A stretch of DNA of 37,109 nucleotides from Nitrososphaerota archaeon (lineage in GTDB: Archaea > Thermoproteota > Nitrososphaeria > Nitrososphaerales > Nitrosopumilaceae), in the NCBI GenBank assembly GCA_016215465.1, contig JACRJT010000044.1, forward strand, positions 1 to 37,109, in the 5' to 3' direction. This document shows positions 5,858 to 32,200 of the stretch, piece by piece; the stretch's first letter is position 1; each line of letters begins with the position of its first letter. The notes below the pieces were generated by a model. That model made no database searches and was not told the DNA's origin. It saw nothing but the letters and a program-made list of their open reading frames with translations. A program made the translations under genes and the position numbers.

Positions 5858-6099
5858 TTTTGTCATCGGCATATGTTTTGATAAACTGTGATCTTGGAGC
5901 TGAGGAAAAAGTAATCAGCGAACTAAAGTCAGTTGGAAGAGTAAAGGAAATGCACGGAGTCTTTGGGGCATATGACATCATTGCCAAAGTGGAAGCTCCA
6001 TCAAGTGAGATGGTACGGGATATCATCACATCAAGAATTCGAAGAATTGACCGAATTCGATCTACCCTGACTTTGATGGGAATAGAGGGGCAGGAATGA
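5854..6099 (+). CDS. Stand-alone Lrp/AsnC effector (RAM) domain protein
   Basis: An 81-aa protein made only of the ligand-binding alpha-beta domain of Lrp/AsnC regulators: SAYVLINCDLGAE (strand 1 and helix), VKEMHGVFGAYDIIAKVEA (the GxYD effector loop) and RIDRIRSTLTLM (last strand). There is no HTH. Stand-alone RAM proteins can pair with full-length Lrp proteins or sense amino acids; that is family knowledge. The start at 5854 overlaps the preceding stop (ATGA), and its own TGA overlaps the next ATG (ATGA at 6096), so the three genes form an operon. Longer upstream frames are not credible. Confidence 0.85.
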   Translation: MILSSAYVLINCDLGAEEKVISELKSVGRVKEMHGVFGAYDIIAKVEAPSSEMVRDIITSRIRRIDRIRSTLTLMGIEGQE

Positions 6100-13998: not shown

Positions 13999-14703
13999 AT
14001 GGCCTCAAGTTCCACAGTAAAGACAATCGTAAAGGACATTATCATAGTTGGAGTGGGAGTTGCTGCAATCTGGTTTGGACTCCAGTTAGCGTTTGGAACA
14101 CAAAATCCATTTTATGTTGTATCTAGTGGAAGCATGATTCCAGTCTTAGAAGTGTACGATGTACTAGTCGTCCAAGGTCATGTGCCTTTTGCAGATATCC
14201 AAGTAGGCGACATCATTGTGTTTAACAGACCAAATGGGCACGACAGGGTAATCGTCCACCGTGTTGCAGATATTTTAGATGATAATCCAAAGACGATTAG
14301 AACAAAGGGCGATGCAAATCCCAGCTCGATTCCTGGAACTGACTATCCACTCACAGAAGAGGAATACATTGGCAAAGTTGTCTATGTCGTACCGCAACTA
14401 GGATATATAACAAGGGTTCTGACGCCTCCAATCAACTACATCATAATTGCAGTAATAATTGGCATAATGATCGTAAAACAGTATTATGGGAAGGGCAAAA
14501 AGGAATCACCCAAATTTGAAACTACCCAGGCAGAATCTGCCACAAATGAAGAATTTACAAAATCGCCTGACATAGAATACAGTAATTCTGTCTCGGATTT
14601 GCCTAGAGAGGAATTTACAAAATCGCCTGACATAGAGCGCATTGACTCCATAGTGGATTCAAAGCAGGACAGCAAGAATCAAAACGATGAGAATAGAACC
14701 TAG
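13999..14703 (+). CDS. Signal peptidase I (archaeal/Sec11 type)
   Basis: Removes signal peptides from exported proteins at the cytoplasmic membrane. The 234-aa protein has an N-terminal membrane helix (10-32), the nucleophile Ser45 in SGSM and His87 in VIVHRV in place of the bacterial Lys. TKGDAN (102-107) supplies the Asp of the Ser-His-Asp arrangement, and a second membrane helix lies at about 146-160. The cytosolic tail is long and carries a tandem repeat, EEFTKSPDIE twice. The ATG at 13999 is chosen; a longer frame from 13972 overlaps the upstream gene. Substrates in this window would include the secreted proteins at 10936, 30427 and 30897. Confidence 0.9.
   Translation: MASSSTVKTIVKDIIIVGVGVAAIWFGLQLAFGTQNPFYVVSSGSMIPVLEVYDVLVVQGHVPFADIQVGDIIVFNRPNGHDRVIVHRVADILDDNPKTIRTKGDANPSSIPGTDYPLTEEEYIGKVVYVVPQLGYITRVLTPPINYIIIAVIIGIMIVKQYYGKGKKESPKFETTQAESATNEEFTKSPDIEYSNSVSDLPREEFTKSPDIERIDSIVDSKQDSKNQNDENRT
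14549..14640 (+). repeat. Tandem in-frame repeat in the signal peptidase tail
   Basis: A 26-nt sequence beginning GAATTTACAAAATCGCC at 14551 recurs exactly at 14611, 60 bp later. It encodes EEFTKSPDIE twice. The 60-bp period is a whole number of codons, so the repeat probably arose by in-frame duplication. Confidence 0.85.
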
Positions 14704-30426: not shown

Positions 30427-30615
30427 TTATTTTGCTAGCTTGCACTGAAATTCTATAATCTCCAAATTCTTTCCATTAGTTTTCTCTTTTGTGACTTTTG
30501 CATGAAAGTTTGGCTGATCTTTTGGTTGTACTTTAGAGTCGGTTGCGGCATGTGCATCAGCAATTGTGAATATAGTCATGGTCAACATTACTGCAAGTAT
30601 CACGTATGCTTTCAT
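30427..30615 (-). CDS. Small secreted protein (62 aa)
   Basis: A 62-aa ORF with a clear signal peptide (MKAYVILAVMLTMTIFTIAD, cleavage likely after DAHA). The mature part is basic, about 39 aa, with one Cys near the end (EFQCKLAK). No family is recognised. The signal peptide is strong evidence that it is expressed and exported. Confidence 0.6.
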   Translation of the reverse strand: MKAYVILAVMLTMTIFTIADAHAATDSKVQPKDQPNFHAKVTKEKTNGKNLEIIEFQCKLAK

Positions 30616-30748: not shown

Positions 30749-30766
30749 TTTCAATATTTTAAACAA

Positions 30767-30860
30767 GGGTGTATGGGCCCACAGGAGCCCCGAAATGCAT
30801 GGTTTCGGGAAACCATACCAAAAACAGGCAGAGAGCCATCGGTGGGCTTACAATACACCT
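30767..30860 (+). ncRNA. Candidate structured RNA with 15-bp stem and internal hairpins
   Basis: A long-range stem joins GGTGTATGGGCCCAC (30768-30782) to GTGGGCTT-ACA-ATACACC (30842-30859): 15 pairs, two of them G-U, with one 3-nt bulge. Inside is a perfect 7-bp hairpin, ATGGTTT-CGGG-AAACCAT (30799-30816), and a small GGC-AGAGA-GCC hairpin. A competing stem, CCCGAAA (about 30789) with TTTCGGG (30803-30809), uses the same bases as the hairpin, so two folds are possible. A T-rich tract (TATTTTTTG) follows at 30864. It fits no family that I recognise. A 72-codon frame through it is not gene-like. Confidence 0.5.
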
Positions 30861-30896
30861 ACCTATTTTTTGTTGCAGAATAGTAAGACTATTTTA

Positions 30897-31901
30897 TTAT
30901 GGCAATATTCTAATTTTATGAATTGGGCCATGATAATTCTGCCATAGCCCAAACTCGTAGAAATGATCAGCTTTTATTTGATATGAATCGGCTTCAATTT
31001 TGTAAAGACCCCCATTAACTAAATCCCTACATCCATCGTCAAGTGTTTCGGTCAATGTTTCCTTAGTGGCAAATGACCCAACTTGCAGGTTTACTCCGTT
31101 CCAAGTACAGACTCTTTTATCATTTTCATCATATATCGAAAATCCAACTGGTGTAGAAGAGGTCTTTAATGTGTCGTGCCCAATATTCTTCATAGTGATT
31201 TTTATTAATTCTCCAAATTTGTATTCATATCTGTCCGTCTCAAAAACAATAGGAAATTCATACTCTATCCAACCCCTCTCAATTAATTTTGGAATAGTTT
31301 CAGGTTTCACACATGCTGGCGAACTGTTTTTTGATTTGAATGTCAATTCCAACCCTTTTTTACACACTAGATTAATTGGTTCAATTCCCTTCTGTATCTG
31401 TTTTTTTGGTTGGTAGGGAATCGCATTTTCAAATAATTCTATAGGACAGCCCATCGGAAATGCCCACGAGCCCATATCAGCTGAAAATATTATTTCGAGT
31501 TCTGTTGTCTCCTTCGTAATTGGGATTTCTAATGAGATAGTTTTCTTACCAGAATTCTCGGACATTGTAAACTCTGTCTCTCTTCCGTTTACTAGTATGT
31601 ATGGTCTATCGCCATCTCTTGAAGGTACACATTTGTATCTATATTGCGTGAGTGCCGAAGGAATATCTAGGGAAACACTTCCATCACTTTCTGTTACTAA
31701 TAAAAGCAGAATCGATGATTGCCCTTCGATGGAGGAAAGGGAATTTACTGTGATTCCATCTGTAACGTTATAGCTAATGTTGTAGTAAAAATTCTTGTAG
31801 CGTAATGGAAAGTTTCCTGACGCTTCAACCAAAAGAAATGATGTTCCCAGTAGAGAGATTGAAATGGCTACAACAATTACTTCTAAAGTATTCATACGCA
31901 T
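30897..31901 (-). CDS. Secreted or membrane-anchored thaumarchaeal surface protein
   Basis: A 334-aa protein with an N-terminal signal or anchor (5-27). It has two beta-rich parts. Residues 30-165 are Ig/jelly-roll-like with Cys91 and Cys152. Residues 215-334 resemble BsuPI-type beta domains (KFGELIKITMKNIG, then VGFSIYDENDKRVCTW). Between them is a compact module (180-211), CKKGLEL...SPACVKP...LIERGW, which recurs in many thaumarchaeal secreted proteins. The function is unknown; a surface adhesion or structural role is inference. Confidence 0.7.
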   Translation of the reverse strand: MRMNTLEVIVVAISISLLGTSFLLVEASGNFPLRYKNFYYNISYNVTDGITVNSLSSIEGQSSILLLLVTESDGSVSLDIPSALTQYRYKCVPSRDGDRPYILVNGRETEFTMSENSGKKTISLEIPITKETTELEIIFSADMGSWAFPMGCPIELFENAIPYQPKKQIQKGIEPINLVCKKGLELTFKSKNSSPACVKPETIPKLIERGWIEYEFPIVFETDRYEYKFGELIKITMKNIGHDTLKTSSTPVGFSIYDENDKRVCTWNGVNLQVGSFATKETLTETLDDGCRDLVNGGLYKIEADSYQIKADHFYEFGLWQNYHGPIHKIRILP

Positions 31902-32101
31902 GTTGCTTTTGTACTCATCTTAAACTATTCCAACAATTTATCGCATGATATACTTAATGCGTTTTTTTATGAATATGCATCTAAACCATATTTAGAAATG
32001 AAAGTGCGAAACTCAAAGTACTGTTATCCCTAGAAATTGTATTGACAGTCAAATGTGAACTAATTTTGAGCGTGAAAAGGGCTTGCACATACGTGATATA
32101 A

Positions 32102-32176
32102 TGGGCCCACAGGGATTTGAACCCTGGATTTTCGCCGTGTAAGGGCGACGTCATAACCGATCTGGACCATGAGCCC
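32102..32176 (-). tRNA. tRNA-Val (anticodon TAC), CCA not encoded
   Basis: Read on the minus strand: acceptor GGGCTCA pairs with TGGGCCC (one T-G wobble), the anticodon stem TCGCC/GGCGA encloses CTTACAC with anticodon TAC, and the T arm is CAGGG-TTCAAAT-CCCTG. The discriminator is A. The next genomic bases are TTA, so CCA must be added by the nucleotidyltransferase, unlike tRNA-Ala in this window. A TATA box lies at 32201-32207. Confidence 0.95.
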
Positions 32177-32200
32177 AGCAAAATTCCTTCTCAGAAACCA

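What the first reader, a model, noticed from the sequence alone, without database searches (positions are those of the whole stretch)
30767..30860. Unassigned structured RNA with two competing folds
Seen directly: a 15-bp stem (one 3-nt bulge, two G-U pairs) closes a 94-nt element that contains a perfect 7-bp hairpin (30799-30816). The strand TTTCGGG (30803-30809) can instead pair with CCCGAAA just upstream (about 30789), so two mutually exclusive local structures exist. TATA-like boxes precede it and a T-rich tract follows. It lies between genes and no frame through it looks coding. I know no thaumarchaeal RNA family that it fits, so this could be a new sRNA, or the leader of an unrecognised transcript. 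The competing pairings make a switch-like RNA worth considering.
Basis: partly seen in the sequence, partly recalled or inferred. Interest (0 to 1): 0.65.

Follow-up and report, generated by a model that had tools for sequence, protein, structure and literature searches.

The report
Pseudoknotted end of tRNA-integrated gene cassettes
The odd structured stretch is one copy of a previously unlisted, repeatedly copied element of ammonia-oxidising archaea: a scrap of a tRNA gene's end joined to a strongly conserved RNA-like knot, marking where small gene cassettes, often carrying toxin-antitoxin genes, have been inserted next to tRNA genes.

Summary
The described stem and hairpins exist but are private to this copy. 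The interval is one of at least 11 related copies in this genome (genus Nitrosotenuis) and about 100 in 44 of 250 Nitrosopumilaceae genomes. The shared part is a 51-nt 3' module (30823-30873): an H-type pseudoknot (S1 GAGCC/GGCTT, S2 GGTG/CACC) followed by T6. Covariation is strong: 62 double-change cells against 27 in shuffles, 11 different perfect S2 helices, GU over AC 47:11. It excludes the reported 15-bp stem; the 'competing folds' are not conserved. Upstream lies ATGGGCCCACAGG (30773-30785), a direct copy of the tRNA-Val 3' end at 32101-32113. Other copies carry ends of tRNA-Met, tRNA-Lys or another tRNA-Val. In three relatives synteny resumes exactly at the tRNA-Val end; the 1.3 kb between holds one secreted-protein gene. 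Elsewhere copies form arrays, all in one orientation (26/26 neighbouring pairs), with toxin-antitoxin and other accessory genes between. Best reading: the distal end of small tRNA-targeting integrative gene cassettes, carrying a conserved RNA pseudoknot. Transcription, the recombinase and the knot's function are not shown. No Rfam match.

The parts
30773..30785 (+). att-like box ATGGGCCCACAGG, direct copy of the tRNA-Val 3' end
   Evidence: exact repeat at 32101-32113, no other occurrence in the window
30786..30822 (+). variable linker with copy-specific hairpins (CCCGAAA/TTTCGGG, ATGGTTT/AAACCAT)
   Evidence: not generally structured in the family
30823..30873 (+). conserved 51-nt module (covariance models R1, R2)
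30833..30837 (+). pseudoknot S1, 5' strand GAGCC
30841..30844 (+). pseudoknot S2, 5' strand GGTG
30845..30849 (+). pseudoknot S1, 3' strand GGCTT
30850..30855 (+). conserved A-rich loop ACAATA
30856..30859 (+). pseudoknot S2, 3' strand CACC
30866..30871 (+). T6 tract, conserved in the family, terminator-like
30897..31901 (-). cargo gene of the cassette: 334-aa predicted secreted protein with a WING-49 domain, 3' end facing the element
   Evidence: not conserved at this locus in relatives
32101..32113 (+). second copy of ATGGGCCCACAGG = 3' end of the tRNA-Val gene; point where synteny with relatives resumes
32101..32177 (-). tRNA-Val(TAC) gene, the insertion target
30773..32100 (.). inferred integrated cassette

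Best explanation
The element is the distal attachment-site end of a small, non-autonomous integrative gene cassette inserted at the 3' end of the tRNA-Val(UAC) gene. It consists of a 13-bp copy of the tRNA 3' end (30773-30785), a variable linker, and a conserved 51-nt module that folds on the + strand as an H-type pseudoknot followed by a T6 tract (30823-30873). Cassettes of this class insert by site-specific recombination next to tRNA genes. New insertions at the tRNA push older ends outward, leaving same-orientation arrays of such ends with accessory genes between. Shown here: the pseudoknot and its covariation, the tRNA-end repeats, synteny resuming at the tRNA end, a gene-cassette insertion at an element, and the co-orientation. 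Inferred: that a recombinase acting in trans makes the insertions, and that the pseudoknot is selected as RNA. The most likely RNA role is the 3' end or terminator of a short transcript made across the attachment site, for example from the circular cassette, which either insulates the cargo gene or takes part in recombination.
For: Multicopy and conserved: R1 finds 11 copies in the own genome and matches in 12 of 17 congeners; R2 finds matches in 44 of 250 family genomes, 12 of 22 genera. Pseudoknot: 86.8% of cells paired, 62 double-change cells against 26.9 +/- 3.6 shuffled (0/500), covariation score 0.382, slid controls at most 0.139. S2, never part of the search model, alone scores 0.516 against 0.233. 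GU:AC 47:11. Eleven distinct perfect S2 helices. tRNA ends: matches of 12 nt or more to the reverse complement of tRNA 3' ends in 15 of 60 upstream regions, against 1 of 300 shuffles and 0 of 120 comparisons with tRNA 5' ends. The window's 13-bp repeat occurs only at 30773 and 32101. Synteny of the window against G007, G008 and G010 resumes at 32100-32101, the tRNA-Val end; the same holds at tRNA-Met in G008 against G010. G010 has one element where its close relative G008 has element, two small genes, element, with conserved outer flanks. Adjacent copies are co-oriented in 26 of 26 pairs in 13 clusters while neighbouring genes point either way. Cargo includes HicA, ParE and HEPN/nucleotidyltransferase genes.
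Against: No recombinase is tied to the element: an integrase found in one element-bearing island is absent from several genomes with copies. Only 26 of 61 copies have a recognisable upstream box and some consist of the 3' module alone. In the tRNA-Arg(GCG) case the tRNA lies on the other side of the element. No transcript data exist, and no constant promoter was found. No copy was found in viral contigs. S1 was part of the search model, so its covariation is less independent than that of S2.
Confidence: 0.66

Rival explanations
1. Integron-like site: the folded + strand acts as single-stranded DNA recognised by a recombinase, as attC sites do, and the T tract and GU preference are incidental.
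For: Same-orientation arrays of elements with gene cassettes between them, 26/26 pairs; structure kept while sequence varies; cargo with toxin-antitoxin genes.
Against: None of 61 copies has the attC box pair RYYYAAC..GTTRRRY on either strand; the presumed core is a tRNA 3' end; an H-type pseudoknot with a conserved A-rich third loop and a following T6 tract is typical of RNA (general knowledge).
Confidence: 0.15
2. Independent small RNA gene family with a pseudoknotted terminator that happens to be spread by neighbouring mobile elements, with no part in integration.
For: RNA-strand covariation and conserved T6 tract; the window copy and the copy at G007:C22 are 89% alike at non-orthologous sites.
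Against: No promoter at a constant distance; upstream boxes match tRNA 3' ends and synteny breaks at them; co-oriented arrays.
Confidence: 0.12
3. A decaying MITE or REP-like repeat: structure inherited from an active ancestor, no current function.
For: Several copies are partial or mutated; some lack the upstream domain.
Against: Eleven different perfect S2 helices across copies and genera need selection after divergence; a decaying repeat would show broken pairs rather than paired changes.
Confidence: 0.05
4. The first reader's bistable, switch-like RNA with a 15-bp closing stem.
For: The window sequence can form it, z -3.6.
Against: Outer stem private to this copy, inner stem lost in copies that keep the pseudoknot; alternative hairpin broken in G006; upstream domain not generally structured.
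Confidence: 0.02

Closest known systems
Integrated mobile genetic elements of Thaumarchaeota at tRNA 3' ends (PMC6563490)
   Same: Short att repeats (median 17 bp there, 13 bp here) made of tRNA 3' ends; insertion next to tRNA genes; re-use of one site; Nitrosotenuis among the hosts.
   Different: Those are mostly large elements with an integrase. The cassettes here are about 0.4-7 kb, no integrase was recognised among the cargo genes examined, and they end in a conserved pseudoknotted module; a word search of that paper for palindromes, inverted repeats and non-coding RNA showed no mention of such a module.
Integron gene cassettes and attC sites, including archaeal clusters without an integrase (PMC9668308)
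   Same: Arrays of same-orientation structured sites with accessory and toxin-antitoxin genes between them and no adjacent integrase.
   Different: No attC box pair; the box is a tRNA 3' end; the fold is an H-type pseudoknot, not an imperfect palindrome.
IS110 bridge RNA (PMC11208160)
   Same: A structured non-coding stretch next to the recombination core at one element end; in IS110 the circle rebuilds a promoter across the core.
   Different: No IS110 recombinase was found beside the copies examined, there is no evidence of guide loops, and the fold is different. Analogy only.
H-type pseudoknot RNAs (for example preQ1-I riboswitch, type III antitoxin RNAs)
   Same: Two interleaved short helices with an A-rich loop (from general knowledge).
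   Different: No Rfam model matches the element even at E 10; the only hit is a chance CRISPR-repeat match upstream. Not a 5' leader; not tandem RNA repeats before a toxin gene.

Membership tests
tRNA-targeting integrated mobile element (thaumarchaeal iMGE) | Direct repeat of the tRNA 3' end at the far boundary | tested here: met
   ATGGGCCCACAGG at 30773-30785 and 32101-32113 only; 15 of 60 copies with matches of 12 nt or more to tRNA 3' ends
tRNA-targeting integrated mobile element (thaumarchaeal iMGE) | Conserved synteny resumes at the tRNA end | tested here: met
tRNA-targeting integrated mobile element (thaumarchaeal iMGE) | Encodes an integrase | tested here: not met
   The window cassette holds only the 334-aa protein with a WING-49 domain; hence described as non-autonomous. 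One larger element-bearing island at tRNA-Arg in G008 does encode one
tRNA-targeting integrated mobile element (thaumarchaeal iMGE) | Excises as a circle | not testable with these tools
   needs PCR or reads
Integron attC | RYYYAAC..GTTRRRY box pair | tested here: not met
   0 of 61 copies, both strands
Integron attC | Co-oriented arrays of sites with gene cassettes | tested here: met
   26/26 adjacent pairs
Integron | IntI integrase with attI | not tested
   No integrase was identified beside the arrays whose genes were examined, but IntI was not searched for specifically
Known Rfam RNA family | Reaches a gathering score | tested here: not met
cis-regulatory leader or riboswitch | Constant position upstream of same-strand genes | tested here: not met
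   downstream gene same strand 24, opposite 34; upstream gene same 29, opposite 31
IS110 bridge RNA | DEDD recombinase in the same element | tested here: not met
   No DEDD recombinase among the cargo and island proteins scanned against Pfam; a trans-acting one was not searched for

The most novel reading that the evidence does not exclude
The pseudoknot is a working RNA part of a site-specific recombination system: a short transcript made across the tRNA-derived core of the circular cassette, bound by a trans-acting recombinase, by which integrase-less gene cassettes of ammonia-oxidising archaea are moved between tRNA genes.
Probability: 0.15. Interest if true: 0.92.

Novelty: new variant of a known kind. 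Interest (0 to 1): 0.66.

Why it matters
It gives a sequence-and-structure tag for a class of small mobile gene cassettes in ammonia-oxidising archaea, visible with a 51-nt covariance model in 12 genera. It could explain how integrase-less toxin-antitoxin and surface-protein genes collect next to tRNA genes. It also raises a directly testable question: why should the end of an integrative element keep an RNA pseudoknot?

Tried and rejected
Searching for one conserved stem in the first alignments gave only weak hairpins; the pseudoknot appeared only after more divergent copies were collected. 3' UTR, terminator-of-a-gene and leader readings were rejected by random gene orientation. A fixed promoter upstream of the box was not found. 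Integron attC membership was rejected. Viral contigs gave no copy with five patterns. Of the genome-contig hits, the Nitrosarchaeum one is a real copy; the Bacteroidota and Lachnospiraceae hits were not examined and are about as many as chance predicts for an 18-base pattern. One integrase tested as the trans-acting partner does not follow the distribution of the elements. An order-wide search gave matches only in this family.

Full report
Observation. The sequence at 30767-30860 contains the stem, the 7-bp hairpin and the alternative hairpin described; the 94 nt fold well above chance as a single sequence. Nothing in Rfam matches.

A multicopy family. BLAST of 151 bases found further partial copies in the own genome and in congeners, and a pattern search whose records bear names placed the genus as Candidatus Nitrosotenuis. 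A covariance model of the 3' part (R1) found 11 copies in the own genome and matches in 12 of 17 genomes of the genus, and seven copies in genome G158, whose contig matches a Nitrosarchaeum record. A model from all copies (R2) found matches in 44 of 250 family genomes, 12 of 22 genera. Outside the family no match appeared among 350 genomes of the order (stricter filters).

The conserved fold. Lining up 61 copies shows S1 AAGC[C/G]/[G/C]GCTT, whose loop holds GGTG, GTGG, GGGA, GAGA, GGAA and other tetramers that pair with the tetramer after a conserved A[C/G]AATA linker. This is an H-type pseudoknot. On a sequence-only alignment of 58 copies both helices covary far beyond shuffled and slid controls. 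S2, which was never part of the search model, does so on its own. Eleven different perfect S2 helices occur. GU pairs outnumber AC 47:11, so the window's + strand is the folded one. In the window S1 is 30833-30837 with 30845-30849, S2 is 30841-30844 with 30856-30859, T6 is 30866-30871. The reported 15-bp stem uses the same bases and is not conserved; the upstream domain has no consistent fold. A folded single DNA strand is not excluded by the GU count alone.

What stands upstream. In G008 and G010 an array ends at tRNA-Met, and the 3' end of that tRNA, read on the element strand, is the element's upstream box. The window's box ATGGGCCCACAGG equals the end of tRNA-Val(TAC) at 32101-32113 and occurs nowhere else in the window. 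Other copies carry ends of tRNA-Met, tRNA-Lys(CTT) and tRNA-Val(CAC); 15 of 60 match by 12 nt or more against 1 of 300 shuffles (the tRNA set came from one genome, G008). At the window locus, conserved synteny with G007, G008 and G010 resumes exactly at the tRNA-Val end; G006 shares the element at the same left position, its contig ending inside it.

Cassettes and arrays. G010 has one element where G008 has element, 124-aa and 73-aa genes, element, with outer flanks 92% and 97% conserved. A HicBA cassette is shared by G000 and G016 from one element's tail to the next box, with different sequence outside. An insertion of about 6.7 kb in G008 begins within about 50 nt of the start of an element. 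Adjacent copies closer than 10 kb are co-oriented in 26 of 26 pairs (a few are tandem duplications) while neighbouring genes point either way (simple ORF calls). Cargo includes HicA, ParE, HEPN with nucleotidyltransferase, UPF0060 pairs, a subtilase and cadherin-like surface proteins. The window cassette holds a 334-aa protein with a WING-49 domain.

Mechanism and limits. Tandem integration at tRNA 3' ends explains the tRNA-end boxes, the co-orientation and the synteny breaks, and follows what is reported for thaumarchaeal integrated elements (PMC6563490). What is not explained by that alone is the pseudoknot with its T tract. Its constraint suggests an RNA function, perhaps the end of a transcript crossing the core, as in IS110 circles (PMC11208160), but no promoter, transcript or recombinase was found. 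The integrase of an island of about 29 kb that carries an element at tRNA-Arg is missing from several genomes with copies.

Novelty. tRNA-integrated elements and cassette arrays are known kinds; a conserved pseudoknotted end module on integrase-less tRNA-targeting cassettes was not found in the papers read or in Rfam. Most subscription-journal papers could not be searched.

Noticed in passing
L039 5519-5782 (G000:C30), directly after the element at 5891: Orphan four-repeat CRISPR array (Rfam CRISPR-DR7) inside the element array.
   Followed up: partly
L043 7871-7920 (G005:C9): The 3' arm of this copy is exactly inverted: GGTGTATTGTAAGCCCACC instead of GGTGGGCTTACAATACACC, with the T tract kept.
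   Followed up: no
G008:C1 about 502.9-532 kb (L205, L246): Integrated island of about 29 kb at tRNA-Arg(GCG) with tyrosine integrase, Cdc6-like ATPase, HerA-like helicase, two GmrSD-like genes and an N6-methylase; it bears an element directly after the tRNA.
   Followed up: partly
L204/L247 (G010:C15), positions 14620, 15988 and 18342 of the joined stretch: Three direct copies of CTTCGGGCCCGTTTTAACTGTCAGTCCGA near the same tRNA-Arg: another family of att-like repeats.
   Followed up: no
window 32088-32100 and linkers of many elements: ATACGTRAT recurs both beside the tRNA-Val end and inside the variable linker of many copies; possible second recombinase site.
   Followed up: no
window 30765-30785: The flank AAGGGTGTATGGGCCCAC is complementary to the element's own 3' arm although most of it is chromosomal or tRNA-derived; origin unexplained.
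   Followed up: no
window 30427-30615: Small conserved secreted protein gene (62 aa) left of the insertion, kept at the same locus in several congeners, no Pfam match.
   Followed up: partly
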